A DNA stretch of 64,000 nt, from positions 868,001 to 932,000 of the forward strand of contig NZ_AP027059.1 in assembly GCF_030295325.1 (NCBI RefSeq), read 5' to 3'. The DNA comes from Haliovirga abyssi (lineage in GTDB: Bacteria; Fusobacteriota; Fusobacteriia; Fusobacteriales; Haliovirgaceae). Position 1 is the first letter of the stretch. The number at the start of each line of letters is the position of its first letter. Shown here in pieces: positions 8,499 to 61,941 of the stretch. The translations under genes and the position numbers were made by a program. The notes beneath the pieces are model-generated. The model was not told the origin of the DNA, ran no database searches, and worked only from the letters and a program-made list of their open reading frames with translations.

Positions 8499-8527
8499 TT
8501 GAAAATATGTATGTTTTATGATAAAAT
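8499..8527 (+). promoter_or_regulatory. Promoter of metK
   Basis: TTGAAA (8499-8504), 17 bases, TAAAAT (8522-8527), 39 bases before the chosen start. Confidence 0.65.
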
Positions 8528-8566
8528 AAAAAACATTAAATGAATTATTTGAAGGAGGTTAGATTA

Positions 8567-9763: not shown

Positions 9764-9769
9764 AAATTT

Positions 9770-9805
9770 AGCACGTTGCTATAGTAATAGTAGCGTGCTT
9801 TTGGT
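9770..9805 (+). terminator. Intrinsic terminator of metK
   Basis: agcacgttgctat (9770-9782) pairs with atagtagcgtgct with two G-U pairs, followed by ttttggttttt. Confidence 0.8.
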
Positions 9806-9832
9806 TTTTAAATTAGAAGTTCAAAATTTAAG

Positions 9833-9861
9833 TTGTTTTTCATTATAAATTAAAGTATAAT
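9833..9861 (+). promoter_or_regulatory. Promoter of the FliD-like gene
   Basis: TTGTTT (9833-9838), 17 bases, TATAAT (9856-9861). The transcript would begin right at the short palindromic repeat 9872-9912. Confidence 0.6.
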
Positions 9862-9871
9862 TTATAATAGA

Positions 9872-9912
9872 GGAATGGCTTAAAATATAAAAATATTATT
9901 TTTTAAATATTC
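9872..9912. repeat. Short copy of the GGAATGGCTTAAAA palindromic repeat
   Basis: 41 bases with the GGAATGGCTTAAAA left end and ATTATTTTTTAAATATTC right end of the family, lacking the central stem-loop found at 20603 and 48782. It lies in the leader of the FliD-like gene. Confidence 0.6.
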
Positions 9913-9957
9913 AGAGAAGTAAAGAAACAATTTCCAAATCACAGGGAGGTGTGAACA

Positions 9958-45048: not shown

Positions 45049-45837
45049 ATGATGAATTCGTTATGGAGTGCAGCTTCAGGAATGTTAGCACAAGAATTAA
45101 ATATGGATGTAATTTCTAATAATTTGGCAAATACTGATTCAGTTGGATATAAAAAAAGTAGAGTAGATTTTCAAGATTTATTATACCAAACAAAATCTGT
45201 TCCAGGTTCTTTGAATGCAGAAGGGACATCATTACCAATAGGAATACAAGTTGGGAACGGAGTAAGAGCTATTGGGACTCAAAAAATATTTACAGATGGG
45301 GAATATACAGAAACAGGAAATGATTATGATTTGGCCATACAAGGACAAGGATTTTTTCAAGTATTAATGCCTGATGGAAGTATGTCATATACAAGAAATG
45401 GTTCTTTTAAAATAACAGATACAGGGCAATTAGTTACTGCTGATGGATTTCCATTAGAACCATCAATAACTATACCAAGTGATGGGACAAAAATGTCAGT
45501 AGGCTCAGATGGGACAGTATCAGTAATGAGAGGGAATAGTAATACTTCAGAAGAAATTGGGAAAATAGAATTAGCAAAATTTATTAATCCATCAGGACTA
45601 ATGAATATAGGAAAAAATTTACTAACAAAAACATCTGCAAGTGGAGATGCAGAAATAGGTACAGCTGGAGATAATGGCTTTGGTTCGTTGTCTCAAAGAA
45701 CTTTAGAAACATCAAATGTAAAAGTGGTAGAAGAGATGGTAAAAATGATTACAGCACAAAGAGCGTATGAGGTAAACACAAAATCTATTCAGACTGCTGA
45801 TAGTATGCTTCAAATGGCAAATAATTTGAAACGATAG
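45049..45837 (+). CDS. flgG: Flagellar distal rod protein FlgG
   Basis: 262 residues (the next codon, at 45052, is also ATG and could be the start). The rod-family N-terminus SLWSAASGMLAQELNMDVIS then NNLANTDSVGYKKSRVDFQD, the core DLAIQGQGFFQV and TRNGSFKITDTGQLVTADG, and the C-terminus VVEEMVKMITAQRAYEVNTK are typical of FlgG. It forms the distal rod of the basal body across the periplasm. flgA follows 8 bases later. Many bacteria keep flgF directly upstream; here flgF is 7 kb away at 52240. Confidence 0.95.
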   Translation: MMNSLWSAASGMLAQELNMDVISNNLANTDSVGYKKSRVDFQDLLYQTKSVPGSLNAEGTSLPIGIQVGNGVRAIGTQKIFTDGEYTETGNDYDLAIQGQGFFQVLMPDGSMSYTRNGSFKITDTGQLVTADGFPLEPSITIPSDGTKMSVGSDGTVSVMRGNSNTSEEIGKIELAKFINPSGLMNIGKNLLTKTSASGDAEIGTAGDNGFGSLSQRTLETSNVKVVEEMVKMITAQRAYEVNTKSIQTADSMLQMANNLKR

Positions 45838-45845
45838 GTGATATT

Positions 45846-46805
45846 ATGAAAAAATATTTTCTTATAATAATGTTTTTTTTCTTATTGTTTTTTTTAGGAG
45901 AAGTTACTTTTGGAGAAGAGATTAAAATAAAAAATTCGATTAGAGTAACAAATAATATAATAATGTTAAGTGATATATTAAAAACTGATAATAAAAATAT
46001 ATTGGAGAAAGCAAAAGAAGTTCAGATAGGATATTCTCCTAAAGTTGGAGAAGAAAAGAAAATAGAAAAAGAATATATTAATTTAAAAATAAAGCAACTA
46101 AACTTAGATGATAAGATTAAAATTAAAATTCCTGACTATATAACAATAACTAGAAATTATCAAATATTAACAAAAAAAATATTTAAGTATATGGTTTTGG
46201 AGGAATTAAACAGTATATATAAAAATAGTGGATTCTCTTTAGAGTTAAAATTAGATATGAATGAGGAACTAAAATTACCAGTTGGCAATATAAAAGTTAA
46301 ATTTGGAAATAATAGATTAAGTGATATAAAAATAGGAAATTATAATTTCACAGTAAAAATATTTGTTAATGATAAAGTAGAGAAAATAATTAGAACAAAT
46401 TTAAAAGTAGGAATCTTAAAAGAAGTATATATATTGAATAGAGATGTAAAAAGAAATGAAAAATTTTCGATTGAAGATGTCATTAAAATAAAGAAAATAT
46501 TTATTAATAATTATTATAGTGCTAATATAGAAGGCGTTAATGAGATAAAAGGAAAATTATATAGAAGAAATTTAAGAAAAGGAGAAATATTAAAATACAA
46601 AGATTTTATAAAAGAAAAAATATTTAAAAGAAATTCTTTAGTTACTATTTATGTTGATTATAACGGAATAAAATTAAAAGCTACAGGAAAAGCTTTAGAA
46701 GATGGATATATAGGAGATAATATTAGGGTATTAAATATAAACTCTAAAAAAATAATAAATGGAATAGTAACAAAAGAAGGAATGATAAAATTAGAGATAA
46801 AATAA
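45846..46805 (+). CDS. flgA: P-ring assembly chaperone FlgA
   Basis: 319 residues with a signal peptide (about 1-24, ending TFG). The C-terminal 120 residues form an SAF domain (VYILNRDVKRNEKFSIEDVI, GKLYRRNLRKGEILKYKDF) and close with GDNIRVLNINSKKIINGIVT, characteristic of FlgA. It helps FlgI polymerise around the rod in the periplasm, so it implies a diderm envelope. The N-terminal part is poorly conserved. A hairpin terminator follows. Confidence 0.88.
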   Translation: MKKYFLIIMFFFLLFFLGEVTFGEEIKIKNSIRVTNNIIMLSDILKTDNKNILEKAKEVQIGYSPKVGEEKKIEKEYINLKIKQLNLDDKIKIKIPDYITITRNYQILTKKIFKYMVLEELNSIYKNSGFSLELKLDMNEELKLPVGNIKVKFGNNRLSDIKIGNYNFTVKIFVNDKVEKIIRTNLKVGILKEVYILNRDVKRNEKFSIEDVIKIKKIFINNYYSANIEGVNEIKGKLYRRNLRKGEILKYKDFIKEKIFKRNSLVTIYVDYNGIKLKATGKALEDGYIGDNIRVLNINSKKIINGIVTKEGMIKLEIK

Positions 46806-46825
46806 CAAAAAAATATAAAATTTGG

Positions 46826-46866
46826 AAAATAGAGATAAAAAAATAAAATCTCTATTTTTTTTATTG
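46826..46866 (+). terminator. Terminator after flgA
   Basis: aaaatagagat (46826-46836) and atctctatttt pair around aaaaaataaa, followed by a long T run. Confidence 0.78.
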
Positions 46867-46891
46867 ATTTTTTTTCAAAAATAGAGTAAAA

Positions 46892-46927
46892 TATAATCAA
46901 AGTGGTAAAAAGTGGTAAAAAGTGGTA
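46892..46927 (+). promoter_or_regulatory. mraZ promoter -10 and three MraZ boxes
   Basis: A TATAAT at 46892-46897 is followed at once by three direct repeats of AAAGTGGTA starting at 46899, 46909 and 46919, exactly 10 bp apart. MraZ proteins bind tandem GTGG-type repeats at their own promoter (AAAGTG-type boxes in Mollicutes). Covering the start point, they should allow autorepression. No good -35 is visible. Confidence 0.85.
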
Positions 46928-46945
46928 TGAAAAGGGATGATGCTG

Positions 46946-47374
46946 ATGTTTATGGGAGAATTCAAACATAATATGGATTCAAAAGGCAGAGTTATGATGC
47001 CATCTAAATTTCGAGAAGAAATAAAAGATGGAAATTTTGTCTTGACTCGTGGACTTGAGAACTGTCTATTTTTATATCCTATAGAAGAATGGGAAAAATT
47101 AGAAGAAAAAATAAAAGGTTTACCACTTACAAAAAAAGATGCAAGAGCTTTTGTTAGATTTTTGTTTTCAGGAGCTATAAAAGAGAATTTAGACAAACAG
47201 GGTAGAATAAAAATACCGGATAATTTATTACAGTTTTCAAAAATAGAAAAAGAAGTGATAATAACAGGTGCTCTAAATAGAATTGAAATATGGAGCTTTG
47301 ATAACTGGAATTCTTATATAAAAGAAGCAGAAAATTCTTTTGAAGAAATTGCAGAAAATTTGATTGATTTATAG
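46946..47374 (+). CDS. mraZ: MraZ transcriptional regulator
   Basis: 142 residues from the ATG at 46946, about 10 bases after aaaaggga; upstream in-frame ATGs at 46937 and 46940 are closer to that site and are rejected. There are two AbrB-like repeats with DxxGR motifs: [17 protein letters not shown] (about 10-26) and [16 protein letters not shown] (about 84-99). It is a ring-forming DNA-binding regulator of the division and cell wall cluster, and three boxes lie at its promoter. rsmH follows 9 bases later. Confidence 0.96.
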
Positions 47375-47383
47375 GAGAGAAAA

Positions 47384-48313
47384 ATGGAAAAAGAATATCA
47401 CATACCAGTTTTGTATAAAGAAGTAATAGATAATTTAGTTATAAATAAAAATGGAGTTTTTGTTGACTGCACTCTTGGTGGTGGTGGCCATTCAGAAGGA
47501 ATTTTAAAAAACCTATCTGAAAAAGGACATTTAATAGCAATGGATCAGGATGAAGAAGCTATAAAGTTTTCAAAAGAAAGATTAGAAAAATTTAAAGATA
47601 AAATATCTATTTATAGAGATAATTTTTCTAATATAGATACTGTTGTATATATGGCTGGATATGATAAAGTTGATGGTATATTAATGGATATAGGAGTTTC
47701 TTCAAAGCAATTAGACGATGGAGAAAGAGGATTTTCATATAGATATAATGCTAAATTGGATATGAGAATGGATAAAAGGCAAGAATTAACAGCTTATAAA
47801 GTTGTAAATGAATATCCAGAGGAAAAATTAGTAGAAATATTATATAAGTATGGAGAAGAAAGATTTGCAAAAAGAATTGCTCATTTTATTATAGAAAAAA
47901 GAAAAGAAAAACCAATAGAAACTACATTTGAACTGTCTGAAGTTATAAAAAGAGGTGTAAAGGGAAAAAGCAAAAAACATCCTTCAAGAAAAACGTTTCA
48001 AGCAATTAGAATAGAAGTGAATAAAGAATTAGAAGTTTTAGAAAAAACAATAGATAAATCAATAGATTTATTAAAAAAAGGTGGAAGGCTAGCTATAATT
48101 ACATTTCATTCATTAGAGGATAGAATAGTTAAAGAAAAATTTAGAAATTTAGAAAATGGATGCACTTGTCCACCAGATTTTCCAATATGTGTGTGTGGAT
48201 TTGAGCCTAAAGTAAAGGTAATAACTAGAAAACCGATAATTCCAAATGAAAATGAAGTAGAAGAAAATTTTAGAGCTCACTCTTCAAAACTTAGAGTGGT
48301 GGAAAGGGTGTAA
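47384..48313 (+). CDS. rsmH: 16S rRNA (cytosine-1402-N4)-methyltransferase
   Basis: 309 residues. Motifs: HIPVLYKEVIDNL, the SAM loop FVDCTLGGGGHSEGIL, DQDEEAIKFS, GILMDIGVSSKQLDDGERGF, AIRIEVNKELEVLE, LAIITFHSLEDRIVK and HSSKLRVVERV at the end. All are standard for RsmH (MraW). It follows mraZ and is followed 4 bases later by an FtsL-like gene, the usual opening order of the dcw cluster. Confidence 0.97.
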   Translation: MEKEYHIPVLYKEVIDNLVINKNGVFVDCTLGGGGHSEGILKNLSEKGHLIAMDQDEEAIKFSKERLEKFKDKISIYRDNFSNIDTVVYMAGYDKVDGILMDIGVSSKQLDDGERGFSYRYNAKLDMRMDKRQELTAYKVVNEYPEEKLVEILYKYGEERFAKRIAHFIIEKRKEKPIETTFELSEVIKRGVKGKSKKHPSRKTFQAIRIEVNKELEVLEKTIDKSIDLLKKGGRLAIITFHSLEDRIVKEKFRNLENGCTCPPDFPICVCGFEPKVKVITRKPIIPNENEVEENFRAHSSKLRVVERV

Positions 48314-48317
48314 TAAA

Positions 48318-48680
48318 ATGAGAGATAATACAGCCAGAAAAGAGGAATATTTTTATTCATATGATAATGAAAATATAACAAATAAAAATAATGTAGTAAA
48401 TAAAAGTCAGAAACAAAAAAATAATTTTGTGGCTGTTTTGTTTTTTTCAATTTTAATATCTTTGGTTTCTTGTATTTATGTAAATTTAATTATGAAAGAA
48501 ATAGAGGCTGGAAAGCAATTATATAAATTAAAAATAGAAAAGAAAAATCTTATAAAAAATATATCATTATTACAATCTAAAATAGATGGGAAAATGGATT
48601 TGAATAAAATAAGGAAAATTGCAGAAAAAGAGTTAGGTATGGAAATATATAATCAAATACAGTATTTAGCAGTAAAATAG
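48318..48680 (+). CDS. FtsL-like cell division protein
   Basis: 120 residues: a polar Asn/Lys-rich N-terminus (about 1-36), one membrane helix (about 37-58, FVAVLFFSILISLVSCIYVN), then a coiled coil (about 60-95) and the end LNKIRKIAEKELGMEI typical of FtsL/DivIC proteins. Sequence similarity within this family is low; position after rsmH supports FtsL. It would join the divisome at the cytoplasmic membrane. ftsI and mur genes normally follow but a terminator and ndk come next. Confidence 0.75.
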   Translation: MRDNTARKEEYFYSYDNENITNKNNVVNKSQKQKNNFVAVLFFSILISLVSCIYVNLIMKEIEAGKQLYKLKIEKKNLIKNISLLQSKIDGKMDLNKIRKIAEKELGMEIYNQIQYLAVK

Positions 48681-48718
48681 ATCAAAGAAATTATAATTAT
48701 TTTGGTCTATTTTTTTTT
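48678..48718 (+). terminator. Terminator closing the short dcw unit
   Basis: tagatcaaa (48678-48686) pairs with tttggtcta with one G-U, followed by eight T. It overlaps the FtsL-like stop codon. Confidence 0.75.
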
Positions 48719-48781
48719 GAAAAAAAGGAAATATTAGTTTTTGTTGTATATTATAATTAAGGAGCATTAAACAATTACTTA

Positions 48782-48880
48782 GGAATGGCTTAAAAATAAC
48801 ATTCCCATTTTGTTTTAAAATACGCAATAATTTAAGCGTTTTTATAACAAAATATGAGAACATTATTTTTTAAACGTTCC
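48782..48880. repeat. Full-length 99-bp palindromic repeat, copy B
   Basis: Same length and ends as 20603-20701 with four substitutions (two adjacent in the loop). One of them (A to T in the central stem) weakens pairing rather than being compensated. It lies in the 301-base gap 48681-48981, before ndk; a TATAAT at 48752-48757 may start transcription upstream of it. The remaining bases to 48981 hold the ndk ribosome site. Confidence 0.85.
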
Positions 48881-48981
48881 TTACTTTTTTATGAGAACTA
48901 TTGAGTATGTTATTGTTTTATGAGCCGGAAGAGAAACATATTTTCAAGAACAAATAAAAAATAAGGATAAGGAGGATATTT

Positions 48982-49446
48982 ATGGAAAAAAGTTTTGTAA
49001 TGGTAAAGCCAGATGGGGTACAAAGAGAGTTAGTAGGGGAAATAATTGGTAGATTTGAAAAAAAAGGAGTTAAAGTAATAGGATTGAAATTAATGGTTAT
49101 TAGTGAAGAGTTAGCGAGAAAACATTATGCGGTTCATGAAGGAAAATCTTTTTTTGAAGAATTAATAAAATTTATAACATCAGGTCCAGTTGTAGCAATG
49201 GTTATGGAGGGAGAAGGAGTTATTGGTGTAATTAGAAAAATGGTAGGGGCAACAAAGCCAGGAGATGCTGATCCAGGAACGATTAGAGGAGATTTTGTAT
49301 TGGATGCAGGACAAAATATAATACATGCTTCTGATTCTAAGGAAAATGCAGAAAGAGAAATAGATCTATTTTTTGCAAAAGAAGAGATTATTGAGTATAG
49401 TCTAGCTGTAAGACCTTGGATATACTCTTTGCCAAAAATAGATTAA
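48982..49446 (+). CDS. ndk: Nucleoside diphosphate kinase
   Basis: 154 residues. It transfers the gamma phosphate from ATP to other NDPs. Motifs: [19 protein letters not shown] at the N-terminus, [43 protein letters not shown], and the phospho-histidine in QNIIHASDS (near residue 115). The start follows ataaggagga. Its leader contains the 99-bp palindromic repeat and its end a terminator. Confidence 0.97.
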
Positions 49447-49470
49447 TTAAAAATCATATATTTTTAAGAT

Positions 49471-49500
49471 AAGGACAGATTTTGTATCTGTTCTTTTTTT
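49471..49500 (+). terminator. Terminator of ndk
   Basis: aaggacagat (49471-49480) pairs with atctgttctt, followed by a T run. Confidence 0.85.
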
Positions 49501-49528
49501 ACCTGCTAGAAAAGTATAAATTGCACTC

Positions 49529-49557
49529 TTGATTAATTGTGAATAATCGAGTATAAT
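49529..49557 (+). promoter_or_regulatory. Promoter of thiB-thiP
   Basis: TTGATT (49529-49534), 17 bases, TATAAT (49552-49557). I see no TPP riboswitch in the leader. Confidence 0.68.
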
Positions 49558-49611
49558 AGTGTGGTAATTTAAAAAAAAGTAGTGAAAAAATATAAAATAG
49601 GAGATGAAGTA

Positions 49612-50589
49612 ATGAAAAAAACACTAGTATTATTAGGGACACTATTTATGATGACGTTGTTATTTGCACAAGAAGAAGTTACAATTTACACTTATGACAG
49701 TATGGGATGGATAAATGATAAAGTAGTAACTCAATTTGAAAAAGAAAATAATTGTAAGGTAAAAGTAGTGAAATTTAGCAGCACAGGAAATATTGTAGCA
49801 AGATTAAAAATGGAAAAGAAACATAATAAAGCGGATTTAGTAATTGGAGTAACTCCAGTTATGTTAAATGCTTTAAAAAAAGAAGATTTATTAGTATCTT
49901 ATAAGTCAAAATTTATAAAAAATATAAAAGAAAAAGAAATTATATTTGATAATGAATTTTATGTAACACCATATGATTATGGAGCAATTGCAATTGTATA
50001 CAATCCAGAAAATATGAAAAGTATCCCTAAAAATTTTAAAGATTTGACTAAATTAAAGAAAAAACTTATAATAGAAGATCCAAGGACATCTACTACAGGA
50101 CAGGATTTTCTTTTGTGGACAATAGCAGTATATGGTGAAAATTGGGAACAATATTGGAAAGAATTAAAACCTGCAATTTTAACAGTAGCACCTGGTTGGA
50201 GTGAAGCATTTAGTAAATTTGAAGCAGGAGAAGCTCCTATGATGGTTAGTTATGGAACTGACGGAGCTTATTCATATCAATATTATAAAAGTACAAAATA
50301 TAAAGCGTTAATACCTGATGATGGGGGATTTATAGAGGTAGAAGGAGTGGGAATAGTAAATGGTTCTAAAAATATAGAACTGTCTAAAAAGTTTATTGAT
50401 TTTATGTTAGGGAATAAATTTCAAAAAGAGATACCTCTTAATCAATGGATGTTTCCTGTTACAAATATAAAATTACCAGAATCATTCAAATATGCGGTTT
50501 CTCCTAAAAAAGTGGTGTTAGTATCAGGAGAAGAGATATCTAAAAATATGAAAAAATGGCTTGGAAAATGGGAAAAAATTATGGAATAA
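49612..50589 (+). CDS. Thiamine-type ABC transporter substrate-binding protein
   Basis: 325 residues from the ATG at 49612, with aggagatga upstream; a start at 49582 lacks a site and a proper signal sequence. Signal peptide about 1-19 (LLFAQ). The start of the mature protein, VTIYTYDSMGWINDKVV, and later YDYGAIAIVYNP, DPRTSTTGQDFLLW, VAPGWSEAFSKFEAGEAPMM and QWMFPVTN follow the ThiB/TbpA family closely. It binds thiamine or its phosphates in the periplasm. The permease gene follows 12 bases later. There is no ATPase gene. Confidence 0.85.
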   Translation: MKKTLVLLGTLFMMTLLFAQEEVTIYTYDSMGWINDKVVTQFEKENNCKVKVVKFSSTGNIVARLKMEKKHNKADLVIGVTPVMLNALKKEDLLVSYKSKFIKNIKEKEIIFDNEFYVTPYDYGAIAIVYNPENMKSIPKNFKDLTKLKKKLIIEDPRTSTTGQDFLLWTIAVYGENWEQYWKELKPAILTVAPGWSEAFSKFEAGEAPMMVSYGTDGAYSYQYYKSTKYKALIPDDGGFIEVEGVGIVNGSKNIELSKKFIDFMLGNKFQKEIPLNQWMFPVTNIKLPESFKYAVSPKKVVLVSGEEISKNMKKWLGKWEKIME

Positions 50590-50601
50590 TGGAGAAATAA
50601 T

Positions 50602-52140
50602 ATGAAGAAAAAATCTTTTTCAATAAATATGATTGTATTAATAATTTGGACAATACCTTTTATATTTTTTTTAAAGGATTTTTTTAAAGTATCAGAATTA
50701 ATTAAATTATTTAATTATAAATTGTTAAAAATTTTATATTATACAGTATTACAGTCTGCAATTTCAACAGTAGGAGCATTTGTTATATCACTTGCTCCTG
50801 CTTATTTTTTTTCTAAAAAAGAAAATTTATTATCAAAATTATTAGGCAGTACAATAGTAATACCATTTTTTTTTCCAGTGGTATCTGCAATAGTCTCATT
50901 TTCTATAATATTTTCATTTCCGTTATTGAAAAAAATTGGACTTATGTATAGCTTTTGGGCTATAATAATTGTTCATATATTTTATAATTCTCCAATTTAT
51001 GTGAAATATCTTGGGGAGGGATTAAAAAAAATACCAAGAAACATAATAGAAGAAGCTGAAATTATAGGTGCGAAAAAAAGAGATATATTTTTTAAAATAG
51101 AATTGCCAATATTAGCTTCAGCAATATTAAAAGCTACTTTTTTAGTTTTTACATATTGTTTTATGAGTTTTGCAGTTGTTTTAGCATTAGGTGGAATCAA
51201 ATATAGTACTTTTGAAGTTGCAATAGTAACTTCTCTTATGGGAGAATTCAATTTTTCAAAGGCATTTATATATGCTTTTATTCAGTTTTTATTTCTTTTT
51301 TTGTTTAACAGTTTATTAAATAGAGTTGGAAATGAGAATTATGAATTAGGAATGGAAAATAAAAAAGAGAAAAAAATAAATGTCATTATATTAATTATAT
51401 CTATATTTTATTTAATGTTTGAATTTGGAGTAATAATAATCTCTGTTATATATTCGTTTTATGATTTTTTTAATAGCAGATTTGATTTTTCTGCTGTTAA
51501 TAGAGTTTTTTTTGGAGATATATCAAAAAAATTTAGAGTATACAGTTCGTTTTGGAATTCTATTTCTATATCTTTTTTTGTGGCATTTATAGTGGTTATA
51601 TTTGTATATTTGATATTAAAAAACAAAAATAAATTTATTTCTAAATTTGTTGTTGCAGCAATAAGCATATCACCAGCTTTTTTAGCTATGGCTTTGTTAT
51701 ACATGAATATATTATTTGATATTAATTTCTTTATTCTATTATTTTGGGGATATTTATTAATTACAGTTCCAATAGGATACTCTTTTTTGTATCAACATAT
51801 AACAGGATTTGACAAAGAGATTATAGAGGCAGCAAAATTAGACGGTGCAACAAATTTTAAGATGTTTTATTATATTGAGGCGCCTATATTATTTCCAGTA
51901 TTTATAGGAACTTTTTTGCAGCTATTTGCTATTATATACGGTGAATTTACATTAGCATATGCAATGCAGGTTCAAGAATATGTGCCACTTGTATCAATAT
52001 TAAATTATAGTTTATCTTCACGTAGATTATTTAAAGAAAGTGCGGTAATTAGTGCGGTAAATATTGTTATAATCTTGTCTATTTTTGTTATTAGCGAAAT
52101 GATGATTAGTGGGGAAAAGAAAAGTAGAAAAGAGAAATAG
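50602..52140 (+). CDS. Thiamine-type ABC transporter permease (duplicated domain)
   Basis: 512 residues with about 12 membrane helices in two halves, each a binding-protein-dependent permease domain. The EAA loops are visible as EEAEIIGAKKRDIFFKIELP (about residues 150-170) and EAAKLDGATNFKMFYYIEAP (about 410-430). This two-in-one layout matches ThiP and the FbpB iron permeases; the adjacent ThiB-like protein favours thiamine. The usual ThiQ ATPase is missing downstream, where a flagellar operon begins. Confidence 0.82.
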   Translation: MKKKSFSINMIVLIIWTIPFIFFLKDFFKVSELIKLFNYKLLKILYYTVLQSAISTVGAFVISLAPAYFFSKKENLLSKLLGSTIVIPFFFPVVSAIVSFSIIFSFPLLKKIGLMYSFWAIIIVHIFYNSPIYVKYLGEGLKKIPRNIIEEAEIIGAKKRDIFFKIELPILASAILKATFLVFTYCFMSFAVVLALGGIKYSTFEVAIVTSLMGEFNFSKAFIYAFIQFLFLFLFNSLLNRVGNENYELGMENKKEKKINVIILIISIFYLMFEFGVIIISVIYSFYDFFNSRFDFSAVNRVFFGDISKKFRVYSSFWNSISISFFVAFIVVIFVYLILKNKNKFISKFVVAAISISPAFLAMALLYMNILFDINFFILLFWGYLLITVPIGYSFLYQHITGFDKEIIEAAKLDGATNFKMFYYIEAPILFPVFIGTFLQLFAIIYGEFTLAYAMQVQEYVPLVSILNYSLSSRRLFKESAVISAVNIVIILSIFVISEMMISGEKKSRKEK

Positions 52141-52170
52141 AAAGGAGTTTAAGTCATTTCTAAATATTAA

Positions 52171-52199
52171 TTGAAATAAGATGTTTTGTATGGTAAAAT
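52171..52199 (+). promoter_or_regulatory. Promoter of the flgF operon
   Basis: TTGAAA (52171-52176), 17 bases, TAAAAT (52194-52199). This is a housekeeping-type promoter, not a sigma-28 or sigma-54 flagellar promoter. Confidence 0.6.
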
Positions 52200-52239
52200 A
52201 AAGTATTAAATAGCCGATAATTGGATAGAGGTGATATAA

Positions 52240-53073
52240 ATGTTAAGAGGAATATATACATCAGCATCAGGAATGATTGCACAAATGGAAAGGCAAGATA
52301 CAATAGCTAATAATTTAGCAAATGTAAATACTACAGGTTTTAAAAAAGATCAATCAGTTATAAAACAATTTCCAGAGCTTATGTTATACAGAAAAGATGA
52401 TGAAAAAGAGATAACAAATTTTGGAGAAACTTCAATTTTAACAAAAATAGGTGCACTTGGTACAGGAGCATCATTAGAAGGAGTATACACTGAATTTTCA
52501 CAAGGAAGTTTAGAGAAAACTGATAATAATTTAGATTTTGCAATTTCGGGAGATGGATTATTTGCAGTGGAATCAAAAGGAAGTGTCAAATTAACAAGAA
52601 GCGGTGATTTTGCATTAAGTCCAGAGGGATATTTAATAACTAAAAATGGCGAAAAAGTTTTAGGGAGTTCAGGCAGTCAATTAGGTTATATTAAAGTTTC
52701 AAATTCAAATTTTAAAATAACTAAAAGTGGAATTTTGAAAAATGCTAAAATAGAAGCAAGCAATATAAGTGCTAAGAATATAAGTTTAGATGGAAATAGC
52801 GGGGATTCATTATTATTATTGAAAGTATCTGATAATAAAAACTTAAAAAAAATAGGGGATAATCTTTTTGATATTTCAAATGTAAAAACAATTACACAAG
52901 ATAATAGTTCTAAGATGGAGCAAGGATTTATAGAACATTCAAATGTTAGTAGTATAAAAGAGATGGTAGAAATGATAGAGGTTTCAAGAGCTTATGAAAC
53001 TAATCAAAAGGTGTTGACATCTCAAGATGAAACGTTGGGAAAAGTTGTGAATGAAGTTGGAAAATGGGGGTAG
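52240..53073 (+). CDS. flgF: Flagellar rod protein FlgF
   Basis: 277 residues. The N-terminus LRGIYTSASGMIAQMERQDT then IANNLANVNTTGFKKDQSVI, the middle DFAISGDGLFAVESKG and LTRSGDFALSPEGYL, and the end SSIKEMVEMIEVSRAYETNQ show a proximal/distal rod or hook-basal body protein. The lower similarity to FlgG proper and placement before flgH fit FlgF. It builds the rod in the periplasm. A sigma-70 promoter lies 41 bases upstream. flgH follows after 37 bases. Confidence 0.88.
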   Translation: MLRGIYTSASGMIAQMERQDTIANNLANVNTTGFKKDQSVIKQFPELMLYRKDDEKEITNFGETSILTKIGALGTGASLEGVYTEFSQGSLEKTDNNLDFAISGDGLFAVESKGSVKLTRSGDFALSPEGYLITKNGEKVLGSSGSQLGYIKVSNSNFKITKSGILKNAKIEASNISAKNISLDGNSGDSLLLLKVSDNKNLKKIGDNLFDISNVKTITQDNSSKMEQGFIEHSNVSSIKEMVEMIEVSRAYETNQKVLTSQDETLGKVVNEVGKWG

Positions 53074-53110
53074 ATAATTTTAAATTATTTTAAGAATAGG
53101 AGAAAGTAAA

Positions 53111-53818
53111 ATGAAGAGAATTTTAAAATTAACAATTTTAGTTACATTTATATTAAATATTTTTTTATTTTCTGGTTGTACTCTTTTTAAGAAGAAGGAA
53201 AAGAAAGTTGTAAAACTTCCCGTAGAAAAGCCAATAGAAGAAAAATATGATGAATTATATAAACAGCCAATAGAAAAAGAAAAAACAGAAGAGGAAAGAT
53301 TGTCTTATGCAAGTCAGTATAACTCATTATTTTCAGATAACAAAGCTAGACATGTAGGAGATTTAGTAGCTGTAATTATAAGAGAAAACGCTTCAGCACA
53401 ACAAACTACAAGTGATAGCAGAAATAAAAATGGGACATTAACAGGAGCTGCAGGGACAGGATTTTTAAATTTTTTGCCAGAAATGAGTGCATCTGGAAAA
53501 ACATCTTTGGCAAATTCAGGTACAACAAAAAGAAGTGGGAACTTAACAGCAAGAGTATCAGCTCGTATAATAAAAATTGATAAATATGGAAATTTATTAT
53601 TAAAAGGTAATAGAAAAGTATTGATAAATAATGAAATACAAGAAATAGAGATAGAGGGTTTTGTAAGAAGTGAAGATATAGCAGTGGATAATTCTATAGA
53701 ATCTAGTTATTTAGCAGATGCAAGAGTAAAATATAATGGAAAATTAGTTTTTGATGGAAAAGCAAATCCAGGCGTGATATCTAATGTATTAGGATCTTTG
53801 GTGGGATTTTTCTTTTAG
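53111..53818 (+). CDS. flgH: Flagellar L-ring lipoprotein FlgH
   Basis: 235 residues with lipobox FSGC (Cys 23). The conserved parts follow a charged spacer: SLFSDNKARHVGDLVAVIIR, ENASAQQTT, then SARIIKIDKYGNLLLKGNRK and VRSEDIAVDNSIESSYLADA (about 70-215). It polymerises as the L-ring in the outer membrane around the rod, which is the clearest evidence here for an outer membrane. It lies between flgF and flgI. Confidence 0.95.
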   Translation: MKRILKLTILVTFILNIFLFSGCTLFKKKEKKVVKLPVEKPIEEKYDELYKQPIEKEKTEEERLSYASQYNSLFSDNKARHVGDLVAVIIRENASAQQTTSDSRNKNGTLTGAAGTGFLNFLPEMSASGKTSLANSGTTKRSGNLTARVSARIIKIDKYGNLLLKGNRKVLINNEIQEIEIEGFVRSEDIAVDNSIESSYLADARVKYNGKLVFDGKANPGVISNVLGSLVGFFF

Positions 53819-53883
53819 AAAAGGCTAAAAAACAGATTATATAAAGTGATGAAATGGTTAAGGTTCTTTAGGAGGAAAAATAA

Positions 53884-54879
53884 ATGGGGAAGAAAATAAA
53901 ATTTCTAATATTAATTATGCTAATAATAAATACAATATCTGTATATTCGGCAGAAAAAGTTAGATTAAAAGAAATCGCTAGAATTCAAGGAGTAAGAAGT
54001 GTACAGCTCATAGGAATGGGAATTGTTATAGGTCTAAATGGAACTGGAGATAAATCATCCTTAACTCCTCAAATGTTACAAAATTTATTTAAATATTTTG
54101 GGACAAATATAGCAAGAGCACAAATAAAGTCTAGTAATGTAGCAGCAGTAATGGTAACTACTACATTACCACCATTTAAAAAAGTAGGTGATACAATAGA
54201 TGTAACGGTTTCTTCGATAAATGATGCGAAAAGTTTGGAAGGTGGAATATTAATTCAGACATTATTAAAAGGTCCTGATGGAAGTGTATATGCTGCTGCT
54301 CAAGGGAGCTTAACAAAAGTAAATAATAAGACTACAAATAAAGTAAATGGATTTTTATCTAATGGAGCAATAGTAGAAAAAGAGATAAAAGCAGAGATAG
54401 AACATAATGATAAATTAGTTTTAGTATTAAATAATCCTGATTTTACAACTTCTTCAAGAGTGGCTGATGTTATTAATAAAAGATTTGGATTAGATAGTGC
54501 AAAAGCAGTAGATGCAGCAAGAATAGAGATAAAAAAGCCTTATTCATTTGAAAATGATATAGTAAGCTTTATATCTTCACTTGAAAGTATAGAGGTAGAG
54601 CCAGACAGGATTTCTATAATTGTAATAAATGAAAAGACGGGAACAATAGTGTTAGGAGAAAATATTAAGGTTGCACCAGTTGCAATTTCACAGGGGAATC
54701 TAAACATAACAATACCAGGTAGTTCTAGTTCTGGGAATAGCTTTTATTTTAATGGACCAACAGTAAAAGATATAGTAAAAGTATTAAATTCAGTTGGAGC
54801 AACCCCAAATGATATTATATCAATATTACAATCTTTAAAAGTAGCAGGGGCAATAGATGCTAAAATAAAAATTATGTAG
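53884..54879 (+). CDS. flgI: Flagellar P-ring protein FlgI
   Basis: 331 residues. Signal peptide about 1-22 (ISVYSA). Conserved: VRLKEIARIQGVRSVQLIGM then GIVIGLNGTGDK, SSNVAAVMVTTTLPPF, GDTIDVTVSSINDAKSLEGG, GPDGSVYAAAQGSL, TGTIVLGENIKVAPVAISQG and the final NSVGATPNDIISILQSLKVA. It forms the periplasmic P-ring, helped by FlgA. A strong Shine-Dalgarno (taggagg) precedes it. flgJ follows 13 bases later. Confidence 0.96.
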   Translation: MGKKIKFLILIMLIINTISVYSAEKVRLKEIARIQGVRSVQLIGMGIVIGLNGTGDKSSLTPQMLQNLFKYFGTNIARAQIKSSNVAAVMVTTTLPPFKKVGDTIDVTVSSINDAKSLEGGILIQTLLKGPDGSVYAAAQGSLTKVNNKTTNKVNGFLSNGAIVEKEIKAEIEHNDKLVLVLNNPDFTTSSRVADVINKRFGLDSAKAVDAARIEIKKPYSFENDIVSFISSLESIEVEPDRISIIVINEKTGTIVLGENIKVAPVAISQGNLNITIPGSSSSGNSFYFNGPTVKDIVKVLNSVGATPNDIISILQSLKVAGAIDAKIKIM

Positions 54880-54892: not shown

Positions 54893-55201
54893 ATGAAAAT
54901 AGATTATTTGAAATTAACAATGCCTAATAAAATAGATGTTCCTAAAACAAAACAAGAAAAAGCATTAAAAAAGACAACAGAAGAGTTTGAGAGTATATTT
55001 TTGAAGATGATGATGGATGAAATGGATAAAACAGTTGATAGGAAAAATAGTATGTTTTATGGAGGAAATGCAGAAGATGTTTTTAGAGGAATGTTAAACC
55101 AGAAAAGAGCGGATAGCTGGTCTAAAAGCGGTGGGGTAGGGTTAGCAAAAGTTATGTATGAGCAGTTATCAAAAGGATTGCATGAAGGAGGAAAGAAATG
55201 A
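54893..55201 (+). CDS. flgJ: Rod-binding protein, FlgJ N-terminal domain only
   Basis: 102 residues from the ATG at 54893, 10 bases after aggga; a GTG at 54884 is less well placed. It contains the rod-binding domain (KTTEEFESIFLKMMMDEMDK, then FYGGNAEDVFRGMLNQ) of FlgJ and lacks the C-terminal muramidase of the gammaproteobacterial form. That is normal in other phyla, where a separate lytic enzyme drills the wall. The stop overlaps the next start by four bases (ATGA). Confidence 0.9.
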   Translation: MKIDYLKLTMPNKIDVPKTKQEKALKKTTEEFESIFLKMMMDEMDKTVDRKNSMFYGGNAEDVFRGMLNQKRADSWSKSGGVGLAKVMYEQLSKGLHEGGKK

Positions 55202-56616
55202 AAAAAAATTTTCTTTTTTTCTTTTTTTTGATACAAATATCTGTTTTCTCAGTTGAAATTATGAATTTAGATGAGATTATGCCAAATATGGATGGGTATG
55301 GTTATACAGTTTTTGAAAATAAATTTATAGAAAAATTTAACGTAAAATTATTAAAAATAGTAAAAGGAAAAGGAACAATACCATATTATATTTTAGCAAA
55401 AGTATATGGGGACAATATTTATAAAGCAGGTGGAATAATTGAAGGAATGAGTGGAGCACCTATATACGTTAATAAAAAATTAGTAGGAGCATTAAGCTAT
55501 ACTTTAAATTCAATAAATAATGATATAGGAATAATTACTCCAATAAAATATATGCTCTCTTTGGGAGAAGGCAATTCAAATAAAGATAGCGAATATGTAA
55601 GGCCTGGGACGGCAATATCAATAACTCCCTTTAGAGGTGATATATATATGGATAATATAGGGACTTTAACTTATGTGAAAAATGGAGAATTTTATGCACT
55701 GGGACATTCATTTCAAAATTTAGGAGATATAAAATATTTTTTAAATAAAGCAGTAATTGAATATAGTTTAAATGCAAAATCAAACCCTTTTAAAACGGGA
55801 TATTCAACAGAAACAATAGGGAGTGTATTAGAAGATAAAAGCTCTGGAATATATGGAGTATTAACAGATAATATTGAGACATATAAATTTAATTTAAATA
55901 TTAATGGAAAAAAGTGTAAGTTTGAAATGCCAAAAGATAAAGTCACATTGAATAAATTTTTGAGTAAAGGGATAGAGTTAGCGTTAAATAGTAAATTAGA
56001 TAATATAGGGTTTTATACATTAACATACAAATATGATATTTTAAAGAAAGATAAGAAAATAGCTAGTAAAGAGAATATCTATACTTTTGATAATAATTTT
56101 TTTGAGAATTCAGGGATGATAATTGGAAGTGAAATACTAAATGAAGTTGATAATCAATATAAATTTTTAGATTTTGATAGAGTCAACATTAATATTAATG
56201 CTGACAAAAATATAAAAATTATATATATAAATGATTTTACATTAGATAAGGAGATCTATAAATTAGGAGATACTGCTATTTTAAGTTTAAAATATCATAT
56301 TTATCAAGGAAAGGATCTGAAAAAGAATATTCCTATACTTATACCAAGTGACTTTCAAGTTGGAAGTTTTGTAATAGAAATTTCACCTTTAAATTCACAA
56401 GGTAATGATACTGAACAAACTGGTAATAATAATCAAAATAGTAATAATGGCTTAAATAATATATTAAAGATAGAGATAAAAGATGGAGATTCTAAATCAA
56501 TTTTTTCTAAAAAAATAAAATTTTCATATAAAATTGATTTAGAAAATAATTTAACAAAAAACATAGTTATTGATAGTTTTGAAGCAAATAGTAATAGTAG
56601 TGAGGAGAAAAATTAA
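55198..56616 (+). CDS. SpoIVB-type (S55) peptidase domain protein
   Basis: 472 residues with a signal peptide (about 1-19). Residues about 20-235 match the S55 family: LDEIMPNMDGYGYTVFENKF, the serine motif GIIEGMSGAPIYVNKKLVGA (about 80-100), GIITPIKYML, and a conserved YALGHSF block (about 168). A linker-rich tail about 300-472 looks beta-structured with a Gln/Asn/Gly stretch (about 400-420). SpoIVB is a sporulation signalling protease, but homologues occur in non-sporulating bacteria. Coupled to flgJ (4 bases) and mlaE (1 base). Role unknown. Confidence 0.78.
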   Translation: MKKNFLFFFFLIQISVFSVEIMNLDEIMPNMDGYGYTVFENKFIEKFNVKLLKIVKGKGTIPYYILAKVYGDNIYKAGGIIEGMSGAPIYVNKKLVGALSYTLNSINNDIGIITPIKYMLSLGEGNSNKDSEYVRPGTAISITPFRGDIYMDNIGTLTYVKNGEFYALGHSFQNLGDIKYFLNKAVIEYSLNAKSNPFKTGYSTETIGSVLEDKSSGIYGVLTDNIETYKFNLNINGKKCKFEMPKDKVTLNKFLSKGIELALNSKLDNIGFYTLTYKYDILKKDKKIASKENIYTFDNNFFENSGMIIGSEILNEVDNQYKFLDFDRVNININADKNIKIIYINDFTLDKEIYKLGDTAILSLKYHIYQGKDLKKNIPILIPSDFQVGSFVIEISPLNSQGNDTEQTGNNNQNSNNGLNNILKIEIKDGDSKSIFSKKIKFSYKIDLENNLTKNIVIDSFEANSNSSEEKN

Positions 56617-58048: not shown

Positions 58049-58111
58049 AAATGAGATTTCTTTAGATTATTTTTAAAACATTCACAAATAATTAATGTTG
58101 GGGTGATGGGA

Positions 58112-59953
58112 TTGAAAAAATATTTAGTTAAGGGGAATAATAAGGGAGAAGTTTTAGAAAAAGTATCAAAACATTTTAAAACGAAAATAGAAAATGTAAA
58201 ATATGAAATTTTGAATGAAAAAAAAGGATTATTTGGAAAAGTAAAAGAGATAGAAATGAGAGTATGGGTAGAAGAATTAGAAGAAAAAGCAAGTAATAAA
58301 AAAAATGCAGTAAAAAAAGATAAAAATAAAGAAAAGAAAAGCGAAGAGCCAAACAAATTTTTTGAAATAAAGATATTAAAAAGTGGAATTTATTTAAATG
58401 TGAAAAGTGAGTTTTTAGAATATGGTTTAGATCAATCGGTGCTTATGGATGAATTAGCAATGAGAGAAATAAAAAATCCAGATGTAGAGTCTATTTTAGA
58501 AGCAGTATCAAGTAAAAATAATGAATTTGTAAAAATAGCAGAATACGATCCTGAATATTATATAGATGCTAATGTAAAAGTAGATATTTTAAAAAAAGGG
58601 ATGAAGGCAGTTGTAAATGTATCACCTCCAAATAGAGGAAATCATGTTACATATGAAAAAATTATATCAGAATTAAAATTAAAAGGTATAATTTTTGGAG
58701 TAAATGATAATGAAATAAAGAAAATATCAAAAGAAAAAATATATAATCAAGATATTTTATTAGCAGAGGGGAAACAACCTGAAAATGGAGAAGATGCAAA
58801 AATAATATATCTTTTTGATACAGACACAGAAATAAATATATCAAAAGATGAAAAAGGTAATGTAGATTATAAGGAATTAGATATAATTCAAAATGTCACG
58901 AAAGGACAAGTGCTAGCGAGAAAAGTACCTGCGACTAATGGAGAACCTGGAATGAATATTTTAGGAGAAATAGTTCCTCCTAAAAAAGGAAAAGATAAAA
59001 AATTACCTAAAGGAAAAAATACTTTAATAGGGGAAAGCGAAGAATATCTCGTGGCAGAAAAAGATGGTTATGTATCTCTTGTAGGAAATCTAATTACAGT
59101 GTCTGATGTCTTTATTATAAATGAAAATGTAGATTATTCAACTGGAAACATATCTTTTAATGGAACAGTTTTTGTAAAAGGTAATGTAATAGATGGATTT
59201 AAAGTAGAGGCTAATTATGATATAATAGTAAATGGTATTGTTGAAAATTCATACTTAGAATCAAAAGGGAATGTATCAGTAAAAAATGGAATTATAGGAA
59301 AAGAAGAAGGAATTGGAAAAGTAATTGCAGAAGGAAATATAAAATCAAAATTTATAGAAAATGGAGAGATAATTTCTGGAGGAATGGTTTTTGCAAATAA
59401 TATACTGTATAGTAAAGTAAATGCAAAAGATACTATTAATGTTACATCTAAAAAAGGGAAAATAATAGGTGGGAAAATAGTAGCAGGAAGAGAAGTAATA
59501 GCAAGAGTTATTGGTTCTAAAATGGGAGGAGCTGTAACAGAAGTTGAAGTTGGAGTTTTTCCAGAATATAGAGAAAGATTAAAAGAGATAGAAAACGATT
59601 TGTTGAAAAAATTAAAAGAAAGAGAGAAAAACACAGTAGAATTGAATACACTTAAAAAATTAAAAGAGAATAATAAGTTGCCTGATGATAAAAATAAATT
59701 ATTATTACAAAGAACAAAGCAACAATTTGTATATGCAAAGGATATATTTTCGTTAGAAAAAGAAAAAGAAAAGTTAAAAGAAATATTAAAAAAGGGTAAA
59801 AATGGGAAAATACATGTTTTAGACGAAATATATGAAGGGACAATAATTAGGATAGGAGACCATCAACTACTAATAAAAGATAGTTTTAAATATGTAACAT
59901 TTTATGTAGATATCGAAAGAGATGAGATAGCTATTTTACCTTGTGAGGTGTAA
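58112..59953 (+). CDS. FapA family protein with N-terminal Jag domain
   Basis: 613 residues from a TTG at 58112 preceded by ggggtgatggga; the ATG at 58106 is too close to the site. Residues about 1-55 are a Jag_N domain (GNNKGEVLEKVSKHFKTKIE, KKGLFGKVKEIEMRVWV). The rest is FapA/DUF342: a charged linker (about 60-85), a domain rich in beta strands, a right-handed beta-helix with repeated G-N-V turns (about 340-470), and a coiled coil (about 485-560). FapA of Vibrio affects glucose-type PTS signalling; other members are uncharacterised. M6 protease gene follows 2 bases later. Confidence 0.8.
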   Translation: MKKYLVKGNNKGEVLEKVSKHFKTKIENVKYEILNEKKGLFGKVKEIEMRVWVEELEEKASNKKNAVKKDKNKEKKSEEPNKFFEIKILKSGIYLNVKSEFLEYGLDQSVLMDELAMREIKNPDVESILEAVSSKNNEFVKIAEYDPEYYIDANVKVDILKKGMKAVVNVSPPNRGNHVTYEKIISELKLKGIIFGVNDNEIKKISKEKIYNQDILLAEGKQPENGEDAKIIYLFDTDTEINISKDEKGNVDYKELDIIQNVTKGQVLARKVPATNGEPGMNILGEIVPPKKGKDKKLPKGKNTLIGESEEYLVAEKDGYVSLVGNLITVSDVFIINENVDYSTGNISFNGTVFVKGNVIDGFKVEANYDIIVNGIVENSYLESKGNVSVKNGIIGKEEGIGKVIAEGNIKSKFIENGEIISGGMVFANNILYSKVNAKDTINVTSKKGKIIGGKIVAGREVIARVIGSKMGGAVTEVEVGVFPEYRERLKEIENDLLKKLKEREKNTVELNTLKKLKENNKLPDDKNKLLLQRTKQQFVYAKDIFSLEKEKEKLKEILKKGKNGKIHVLDEIYEGTIIRIGDHQLLIKDSFKYVTFYVDIERDEIAILPCEV

Positions 59954-59955: not shown

Positions 59956-61482
59956 ATGAAAGGAATAGTTGTACTGTTATTTATTGTAGTAAGTAATTTA
60001 GGTTTTGCGTTACCTAATTATGCACCAATAAATCCTAAACTTTTAGAAAAAAAAAGAGTTTTAAATAGAAATATGGGTACTACAAGAATGCAGGAAAATA
60101 TAAAAAAGAATTTAGAAAAATCAGTTACAACAGGAGAATTAAAAGCTCCAGTAATATTAATAGAATTTTCTGATAAGAAGCATTCAAATTTACATGATAA
60201 AGAATATTATTCGAACTTGCTTTTTTCTGATAAAGAAGGGAGTATGAAGGATTATTACGAAAAAAATTCATATGGAAAGTTAAATAATATACATGGTGAA
60301 ATAGTAAATTGGGTAGAGTCAGATAAAACTATGGGTTATTATGGATTGAAAGATGATTCAGCAGATATTCAAAATTTAGTTATAGAAGCTATAAAAAAAG
60401 CAGCTCAATATATAAATTTTTCAAATTATGATTTAAATAATGATGGTTATGTAGATCAATTAATAGTTATTCATTCTGGTGAAGGAGAGGAAAAAAGTGG
60501 AATAGCAACAGACATTTGGTCTCATGAATGGAATTTGAAAACTCCATATGAAGTTGATGGAGTGAAAATATCAAAATATACAATGCAGTCAGAATATTCT
60601 CCAGTAGGAATATTTGCACATGAATTTGGACATGCGTTAGGACTACCGGATCTATATAATACAACAACTGGAGGAACTGCAGTAGGAAAATATTCATTGA
60701 TGGATTATGGTTCTTGGAATGGACCTAATGCAGATGGAACCTCTCCATCATATATGAGTGCTTGGGAAAAGGTTTTTTTAGGATGGATTACTCCAATTGA
60801 TTTGAACTATGCAGATAGAAATGGTACATATATGATAAAAGATATAGAAGAGAATAATATAAATTCTGTATATAGAATTTATATAAAAGGCAAAGAAGAA
60901 TATCTTTTAATAGCAAATAGGCAGAAGAAAGGATATGATAAATATTTACCAGGAAGCGGATTGTTAGTATATCATATATATGAAGGAGAAATTAATGGAG
61001 AATCCCTTGAACAGTCACTTAAATCAAATGATATAAATGGGAAAATTCCAATGAGAGTGAAAGTTTTAGAGGCTAATGGAAAAAATGATTTAGGACAGAG
61101 TGGAAATGATGGAATGAATTATGGAGATGCAGGTGATTATTTTAATTCTTCAGCTTTTACTCAGTTGTTATCTATGAAAAATAATGGCGTAAATAGCTGT
61201 ATTTGGAATTTTTCTAATAATAGTTATGGATTAAATAGTGGAGTATCATTAACAGAAATATCTTCTTCAAAAAGTGTTATGAGTTTTAAATTTTCTGATA
61301 TTGGGTTAGACTTTAATGGAGATGGGAAAGTTGATGGTAATGATATAAAAAAGGTTATATCAACTGCAGATAATTTAGGTACAGATTTAGATTATGATTA
61401 CGATAAGAAATTAGATGAAAATGATTTAGAGGGATATAAAGATAGATTTATAAGAGGATTAGAGAATGCAAAAATTTGGTAG
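59956..61482 (+). CDS. M6-family metalloprotease with C-terminal dockerin
   Basis: 508 residues with a signal peptide (about 1-19, LGFA). The M6 (immune inhibitor A-like) domain spans about 50-400: KAPVILIEFSDKKH, SYGKLNNIHGEIVNWV, the zinc motif HEFGHALGLPD (His 222, Glu 223, His 226, Asp 232), and a Met-turn-like SLMDYG. A dockerin type I-like pair closes the protein: DFNGDGKVDGND (452-463) and DYDYDKKLDEND (479-490), both matching calcium-loop spacing. The next gene encodes a cohesin-like lipoprotein. It is secreted and probably surface-tethered. Confidence 0.88.
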   Translation: MKGIVVLLFIVVSNLGFALPNYAPINPKLLEKKRVLNRNMGTTRMQENIKKNLEKSVTTGELKAPVILIEFSDKKHSNLHDKEYYSNLLFSDKEGSMKDYYEKNSYGKLNNIHGEIVNWVESDKTMGYYGLKDDSADIQNLVIEAIKKAAQYINFSNYDLNNDGYVDQLIVIHSGEGEEKSGIATDIWSHEWNLKTPYEVDGVKISKYTMQSEYSPVGIFAHEFGHALGLPDLYNTTTGGTAVGKYSLMDYGSWNGPNADGTSPSYMSAWEKVFLGWITPIDLNYADRNGTYMIKDIEENNINSVYRIYIKGKEEYLLIANRQKKGYDKYLPGSGLLVYHIYEGEINGESLEQSLKSNDINGKIPMRVKVLEANGKNDLGQSGNDGMNYGDAGDYFNSSAFTQLLSMKNNGVNSCIWNFSNNSYGLNSGVSLTEISSSKSVMSFKFSDIGLDFNGDGKVDGNDIKKVISTADNLGTDLDYDYDKKLDENDLEGYKDRFIRGLENAKIW

Positions 61483-61491
61483 GTGTGTAAT

Positions 61492-61941
61492 ATGAAAAAT
61501 ATAAAAATTAATATATATATTTTTGTAATAATAACATTACTTTTTTCTGGTTGTTTAAAAGATTCTAAATTGCAAGTAAATTTAGAAAAAAATGATCAAA
61601 TTTCTGGAAATATGGAAGCTGCAATGAGTAATGTATCAAAAGATGGAAAATATTCTTTTGGAGATATAGTTAATATTGATTTGAAAGCAATAACTGATAC
61701 AAAATTTATGAGTTTTGATATAATTTGTAATACAAATAATTTAATACTTACGAATATAAAAAAAGATGGATTTAGTGATTCAAATTTTGTATCATCTTAT
61801 CAAATAAAAAATGGATATAGACTGTTTTTCTGGGATTTAAAAAACAATTTGAAAAAAGATGATAATTTTGCTAAAATATCTTTGTCAGTTAGGAATTATG
61901 GAGTAGAAAATATTAAAATAGATAATTTTATTAAGGAGTGA
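61492..61941 (+). CDS. Lipoprotein with cohesin-like domain
   Basis: 149 residues from the ATG at 61492, 6 bases after aggtg. Lipobox LFSGC (Cys 21). Residues about 45-147 resemble a cohesin or related Ig-like fold: YSFGDIVNIDLKAITDTKFM, SFDIICNTNNLILTNIKK, GYRLFFWDLK, FAKISLSVRNYGVENIKID, which follow the cohesin order (G-D strand, D/N turn, I-K-K-D, W-region, closing strand). The match is by pattern, not by identity. It starts 9 bases after the dockerin-bearing protease, which makes a cohesin-dockerin pair likely. A general carbohydrate-binding or Ig-like lipoprotein is the alternative. Confidence 0.6.
   Translation: MKNIKINIYIFVIITLLFSGCLKDSKLQVNLEKNDQISGNMEAAMSNVSKDGKYSFGDIVNIDLKAITDTKFMSFDIICNTNNLILTNIKKDGFSDSNFVSSYQIKNGYRLFFWDLKNNLKKDDNFAKISLSVRNYGVENIKIDNFIKE

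What the first reader, a model, noticed from the sequence alone, without database searches (positions are those of the whole stretch)
59956..61941. Candidate two-gene cohesin-dockerin system anchoring an M6 protease
The protease ends in two DxNxDGxxDxxD-type loops (452-463, 479-490) arranged like a dockerin. The very next gene, 9 bases away, is a small lipoprotein whose single domain follows a cohesin-like strand pattern. In cellulosome biology a cohesin on the surface holds a dockerin on an enzyme. Here the enzyme would be a secreted protease and the anchor a 149-residue lipoprotein, a minimal one-to-one system. I know of no described example in a non-cellulolytic flagellated diderm of this type. 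The cohesin call rests on pattern only.
Basis: partly seen in the sequence, partly recalled or inferred. Interest (0 to 1): 0.8.

Follow-up and report, generated by a model that had tools for sequence, protein, structure and literature searches.

The report
Possible dockerin protease and lipoprotein anchor
Next to flagellar genes in a deep-branching fusobacterium, a secreted protease ends in a small calcium-loop module that resembles a dockerin plug, and the next gene makes an orphan lipoprotein that faintly resembles the matching cohesin socket, so the pair may be a two-gene clip holding one enzyme to the cell envelope, though the socket half is not proven.

Summary
An M6 metalloprotease (59956-61482) carries two Asp-rich loops at exactly residues 452-463 and 479-490. 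Nine bases on starts a 149-residue lipoprotein (61492-61941). No other stretch in any frame of the window has such a loop. Homology to other M6 proteases stops at about residue 447, so the loop module is an add-on; the closest relatives (40% identical, phylum Zixiibacteriota) carry a type IX secretion tail there.

The dockerin half is likely: best PDB match is the Clostridium perfringens NagH dockerin, aligned over both loops with nearly the same short spacing, and five other dockerins are among the fifteen hits. It falls below Pfam's cut-off.

The cohesin half is plausible but unproven. The lipoprotein's only PDB match is the C. perfringens NanJ cohesin (E 0.075-0.11), from the same known cohesin-dockerin system; a reversed and two shuffled copies gave no comparable hit. 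But Pfam cohesin does not match, profile tests put it only in the top 1-6% of decoys, structure prediction failed for lack of relatives, and no homologue was found.

Best reading: a minimal cohesin-dockerin-like tether for one protease, probability about 0.5. No contact between the two could be tested here.

The parts
59956..61482 (+). Exported M6 (immune inhibitor A-like) metalloprotease, 508 aa: signal peptide about 1-18, catalytic region 63-340, further conserved region to about 447
   Evidence: homologues align to about residue 447; signal peptide by inspection
61297..61479 (+). C-terminal dockerin-like add-on module (residues 448-508) with two F-hand-type calcium loops
   Evidence: best PDB hit the NagH dockerin 2jnk/2ozn, E 0.034; Dockerin_1 11.9 bits, below the 22.9 cut-off; loop-helix-loop-helix in a low-confidence model
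61309..61344 (+). Loop 1, DFNGDGKVDGND (452-463)
61390..61425 (+). Loop 2, DYDYDKKLDEND (479-490)
61492..61941 (+). Orphan lipoprotein, 149 aa; lipobox LFSGC with Cys21; candidate single cohesin-like domain about residues 49-149
   Evidence: only PDB hit the NanJ cohesin 2vo8; weak profile matches in the same register; no relatives found

Best explanation
The protease is exported and, through its C-terminal module of two calcium loops each followed by a helix, plugs into a single divergent cohesin-like domain displayed by the lipoprotein made from the next gene. The lipid anchor would keep the protease in the envelope, one enzyme per anchor and no multi-site scaffold, and calcium would make the grip conditional. 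Shown: gene order, loops, lipobox, domain boundary at about 447, weak similarity of both halves to the two partners of the C. perfringens system. Inferred: cohesin fold of the lipoprotein, binding, calcium dependence, and which side of which membrane.
For: Two separate searches of 177,635 PDB sequences, one per gene, both came out at the C. perfringens hydrolase cohesin-dockerin system: dockerin module to NagH dockerin 2jnk/2ozn, E 0.034, 48 residues across both loops with one gap; lipoprotein to NanJ cohesin 2vo8 alone, E 0.11, or as best hit at 0.075 with the core. About 40 of the 177,635 sequences answer to a cohesin profile, so a chance top hit on a cohesin would be rare. Reversed and shuffled lipoprotein gave 0, 0 and 1 hit (Erbin, E 0.82) up to E 10. 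Cohesin profile A1 aligns the lipoprotein in the same register (YSFGDIVNIDLKA...FMSFDIICNTNNLIL) and ranks it third of about 390 predicted proteins sampled from its own genome. Loop position 12 is Asp in both repeats, as in dockerins, and spacing is 27 against 28 in NagH (counted from the alignment). The add-on begins where M6 homology ends, and relatives carry a different attachment module there. The genome shows no other convincing dockerin or cohesin by Pfam search, so the adjacent gene is the natural partner.
Against: No Pfam or NCBIfam cohesin match. Known cohesins score 8-58 bits against profiles that exclude their relatives; this one scores 4-6. Profile ranks against decoys are only the top 1-6%, with unrelated proteins (a HAD phosphatase, an acyltransferase) ranking above it, and pairwise alignments to 33 cohesins are at chance level. 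Orphan, so no conservation of the pair. AlphaFold2 model of the lipoprotein at pLDDT 33 is useless, and the dockerin model (pLDDT 52) matched no dockerin fold. In a larger database the lipoprotein also collects spurious hits of up to 24 bits.
Confidence: 0.5

Rival explanations
1. The C-terminal module is a calcium-binding EF-hand-like pair that stabilises or regulates the protease on its own, and the lipoprotein is an unrelated orphan that happens to be transcribed with it.
For: Pfam EF-hand models score as well as or better than Dockerin_1; the lipoprotein is an orphan with only marginal cohesin signal; genes here lie in a dense same-strand run with FapA, DUF2344 and SerS, where adjacency is cheap.
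Against: Position 12 is Asp, not Glu, in both loops; dockerins are the top four PDB hits and six of fifteen; the lipoprotein's only or best PDB hit is a cohesin.
Confidence: 0.28
2. The module is a dockerin, but its partner is a different, undetected cohesin in the genome or on another organism, and the lipoprotein does something else.
For: The lipoprotein is not recognised by any cohesin profile; divergent cohesins elsewhere in the genome could be missed by the same profiles.
Against: Pfam cohesin search of the whole genome finds only a false positive in LptD; the adjacent lipoprotein is the only candidate seen.
Confidence: 0.1
3. The lipoprotein is an envelope-bound inhibitor or folding helper of the protease that protects the producing cell, acting on the catalytic domain and not on the C-terminal module.
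For: A small exported protein co-encoded with a protease is a common inhibitor arrangement (general knowledge, no tool result); a folded core of about 100 residues would be large enough.
Against: No match to any inhibitor family; this leaves the dockerin-like module unexplained.
Confidence: 0.1

Closest known systems
Clostridium perfringens cohesin (X82)-dockerin system of secreted glycoside hydrolases (NanJ, NagJ, NagH; PDB 2vo8, 2ozn, 2jnk)
   Same: Non-cellulosomal; one cohesin per protein; closest PDB relatives of both halves; short spacing between dockerin loops (28 against 27)
   Different: There both modules sit on glycoside hydrolases (PMC12997984); here the enzyme is a protease and the cohesin candidate is a stand-alone lipoprotein
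Classical cellulosome cohesin-dockerin (type I) with anchoring scaffoldins
   Same: Enzyme carries a C-terminal dockerin; cohesin partner on the cell
   Different: No multi-cohesin scaffoldin, no cellulose-binding module, no SLH anchor; one enzyme and one candidate cohesin
Limousia mucinolysome with dockerin-bearing peptidases (PMC12997984)
   Same: Dockerin-bearing secreted peptidases in a non-cellulosic cohesin-dockerin system
   Different: Many dockerin enzymes on scaffoldins there; a single pair here
Noncellulosomal cohesin and dockerin modules of archaea (Archaeoglobus; ANME, PMC9012536)
   Same: Cohesin-dockerin used outside cellulose breakdown
   Different: Other carrier proteins, such as solute-binding proteins in ANME
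Zixiibacteriota M6 proteases with a T9SS type A tail (e.g. L056, L063)
   Same: Closest catalytic relatives, 38-43% identity, the same M6 core ending at about residue 447
   Different: A type IX secretion/FlgD-like tail (TIGR04183) in place of the dockerin-like module

Membership tests
M6 metalloprotease (TIGR03296/PF05547) | Profile match above curated cut-off and HExxHxxGxxD zinc motif | tested here: met
   234.1 bits against cut-off 110.8; 105.9 against 22; HEFGHALGLPD at 222-232
Dockerin (PF00404) | Two duplicated calcium loops with ligands at 1, 3, 5, 9 and 12, and Asp at 12 | tested here: met
   DFNGDGKVDGND and DYDYDKKLDEND; loop 2 lacks Gly at position 6
Dockerin (PF00404) | Profile score above gathering cut-off | tested here: not met
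   11.4-12.6 bits against 22.9
Dockerin (PF00404) | Each loop followed by a helix (F-hand) and a compact dockerin fold | tested here: inconclusive
   Helices after both loops in a pLDDT 52 model; no dockerin match by fold search
Dockerin (PF00404) | Binds a cohesin, calcium dependent | not testable with these tools
   needs a complex prediction or a binding assay
Cohesin (PF00963) | Profile score above gathering cut-off | tested here: not met
   No PF00963 match in hmmscan or in the whole-genome search apart from a false positive in LptD
Cohesin (PF00963) | Detectable sequence similarity to known cohesins | tested here: inconclusive
   2vo8 is the only or best PDB hit, E 0.075-0.11; own cohesin profiles give 4-6 bits, top 1-6% of decoys; hhalign P 0.044
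Cohesin (PF00963) | Nine-stranded jelly-roll fold | tested here: inconclusive
   Model pLDDT 33, not interpretable
Bacterial lipoprotein | Signal peptide with lipobox and Cys | tested here: met
   MKNIKINIYIFVIITLLFSGC by pattern; same FSGC as FlgH in this window. No dedicated predictor was available

The most novel reading that the evidence does not exclude
A minimal cohesin-dockerin tether: one envelope lipoprotein that is nothing but a single divergent cohesin holds one dockerin-bearing protease, in a flagellated fusobacterium, a phylum for which no cohesin-dockerin pair turned up in the papers searched. A protease of a family that uses type IX secretion tails in its closest relatives would have been re-fitted with a plug-in calcium clip.
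Probability: 0.42. Interest if true: 0.62.

Novelty: new variant of a known kind. Interest (0 to 1): 0.47.

Why it matters
If true, it shows the cohesin-dockerin clip reduced to two genes and used to hold a protease, outside Clostridia, archaea and cellulose breakdown. It would offer a small, possibly calcium-switchable protein pair for display and assembly work, and suggest that orphan lipoproteins beside dockerin-bearing enzymes may hide cohesins that present profiles miss.

Tried and rejected
Lipoprotein as a standard cohesin by Pfam, NCBIfam, two home-made HMMs and hhalign: no confident match. Pairwise alignment to 33 cohesins: no better than shuffles. Relatives of the lipoprotein in plasmids, phages, viral contigs, 391 genomes of the class around G098 and 98 Fusobacteriota: none; the best-scoring hits that were read out (L099, L100, L130, L131) lie in or overlap unrelated genes such as a transposase and a LysR regulator. 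Other dockerins or cohesins in the genome: hits fall in LptD, an RTX-like giant protein, lipoprotein/outer-membrane type proteins and an esterase-like protein, none a dockerin pair. Single-sequence AlphaFold2 of the lipoprotein: uninformative. Other M6 genes in the phylum (5 further genomes of 98): the two read out carry no such loops.

Full report
What is there. The 508-residue protein at 59956-61482 is an M6 metalloprotease (TIGR03296 E 2.9e-69; PF05547 E 3.1e-30) with an intact HEFGHALGLPD zinc motif and, by inspection, a signal peptide. Its last 61 residues hold two Asp-rich loops, DFNGDGKVDGND and DYDYDKKLDEND, at residues 452-463 and 479-490. No other such loop occurs in any of the six frames of the window, and the two repeats resemble each other. 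Nine bases after its stop an ATG opens a 149-residue lipoprotein with lipobox LFSGC, the same FSGC that the window's FlgH carries. FapA lies just upstream and a DUF2344 gene and SerS just downstream, all on one strand.

The loop module is an add-on. The protease has few and distant relatives in Fusobacteriota (6 of 98 genomes, its own included), but 123 of 133 genomes of the Zixiibacteriota group hold M6 proteins of up to 220 bits and about 40% identity, more than the best of 391 genomes of the class around a Clostridiaceae MAG (172 bits). Many of the alignments end near residue 447. Beyond that point the Zixiibacteriota relatives read out carry a type IX secretion / FlgD-like tail, and another relative, L001, ends at a contig break in what looks by eye like the start of a dockerin. 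So the C-terminus of this protease family looks like an exchangeable attachment slot, and here the slot is filled with the loop module. That is an inference from domain boundaries; no tree was built.

Is the module a dockerin? Dockerin_1 scores 11-13 bits, below the 22.9 cut-off, and EF-hand models score similarly or better. But both loops have Asp at position 12, the dockerin habit (general knowledge of the families), and in a search of 177,635 PDB sequences the module's best hit is the dockerin of C. perfringens NagH (2jnk/2ozn, E 0.034), aligned over both loops with one gap; the next three and two later hits are also dockerins. Counting from that alignment, NagH spaces its loops by 28 residues, this protein by 27. 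A single-sequence model (pLDDT 52) puts a helix after each loop but is too poor for a fold match. I put a dockerin-type module at about 0.75.

Is the lipoprotein a cohesin? Against: no Pfam or NCBIfam match. A profile of 33 cohesins gathered here gives 3.9 bits, while real cohesins score 8-58 bits even against profiles without close relatives. Those test cohesins were themselves found by Pfam, which flatters them. Against decoys the lipoprotein sits in the top 1-6% in most of these tests (26 of 300 shuffles beat it in one hhalign test), and the two proteins of its own genome that score higher are plainly unrelated. Pairwise alignments are at chance level. For: its only PDB hit up to E 10 is the NanJ cohesin 2vo8 (E 0.11; still the best hit at 0.075 for the core alone). 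Only about 40 PDB sequences answer to a cohesin profile, and reversed or shuffled copies gave 0, 0 and 1 hit, the one being Erbin at E 0.82. The profile alignments, though weak, fall in the same register as the 2vo8 match. And 2vo8 and 2ozn belong to the same cohesin-dockerin system, so two genes side by side point to the two partners of one known complex type. A caution: in larger searches this AT-rich sequence collects hits of up to 24 bits to a transposase, so E-values near 0.1 deserve little weight alone. Overall I put cohesin-type at about 0.55 and the tether as a whole at 0.5.

The lipoprotein is an orphan: nothing in 98 Fusobacteriota, 391 genomes of the class around G098, plasmids, phages or viral contigs. 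It also starves structure prediction (pLDDT 33).

How it would work. Both proteins are exported. The lipoprotein is lipid-anchored at Cys21; the residue after it is Leu, which by the E. coli rule means outer membrane, but this is not established for fusobacteria. The protease docks through its calcium loops. Whether this happens on the cell surface or in the periplasm is open: the genome has four secretins, so an export route across the outer membrane may exist, but none is tied to this protease.

Compared with what is known. Cohesin-dockerin pairs outside cellulosomes are established in C. perfringens, archaea and Limousia (PMC12997984, PMC9012536), and dockerin-bearing peptidases exist in Limousia (PMC12997984). 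What would be new is a one-to-one pair with a stand-alone lipoprotein cohesin holding a protease in Fusobacteriota. A library search for Fusobacteria with cohesin and dockerin returned 17 papers; the titles and abstracts listed do not describe such a pair. The library is open-access only, and Peer et al. 2009, the main survey, could not be read. Because the cohesin profile test was run and not met, I do not file the lipoprotein as a cohesin; I say it may work like one.

Organism. The genome is the only member of its family among 98 Fusobacteriota searched and carries FlgG-type, FlgH and FlgI genes in this window. Haliovirga (Fusobacteriales, Haliovirgaceae, one species) would fit, but this is a guess.

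Noticed in passing
45049-54879: Flagellar genes (FlgG-type rod protein, FlgH, FlgI by Pfam; a FlgA-like gene by eye) in a Fusobacteriales genome, a group generally regarded as non-flagellated.
   Followed up: partly
55198-56616: Directly after flgI lies a protein with an S55 (SpoIVB-type) peptidase domain and an added C-terminal region, in an organism not expected to sporulate.
   Followed up: no
58103-59953: FapA (DUF342) with a weak Jag-N match at its N-terminus, directly upstream of the protease.
   Followed up: no
L005 (second contig, 7742-10888): Open frame of about 8,567 residues with RTX-like repeats and a weak dockerin/EF-hand-like stretch on the 297-kb second contig.
   Followed up: partly
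L053 559-1842 and 1844-2710: Outer-membrane type protein (resembles PorV/UPF0164 by eye) with one EF-hand-like loop, next to a lipoprotein that also has one such loop.
   Followed up: no
L056-L085: M6 proteases close to this one are nearly universal in the Zixiibacteriota group (123 of 133 genomes), those read out mostly with a type IX secretion-type tail.
   Followed up: partly
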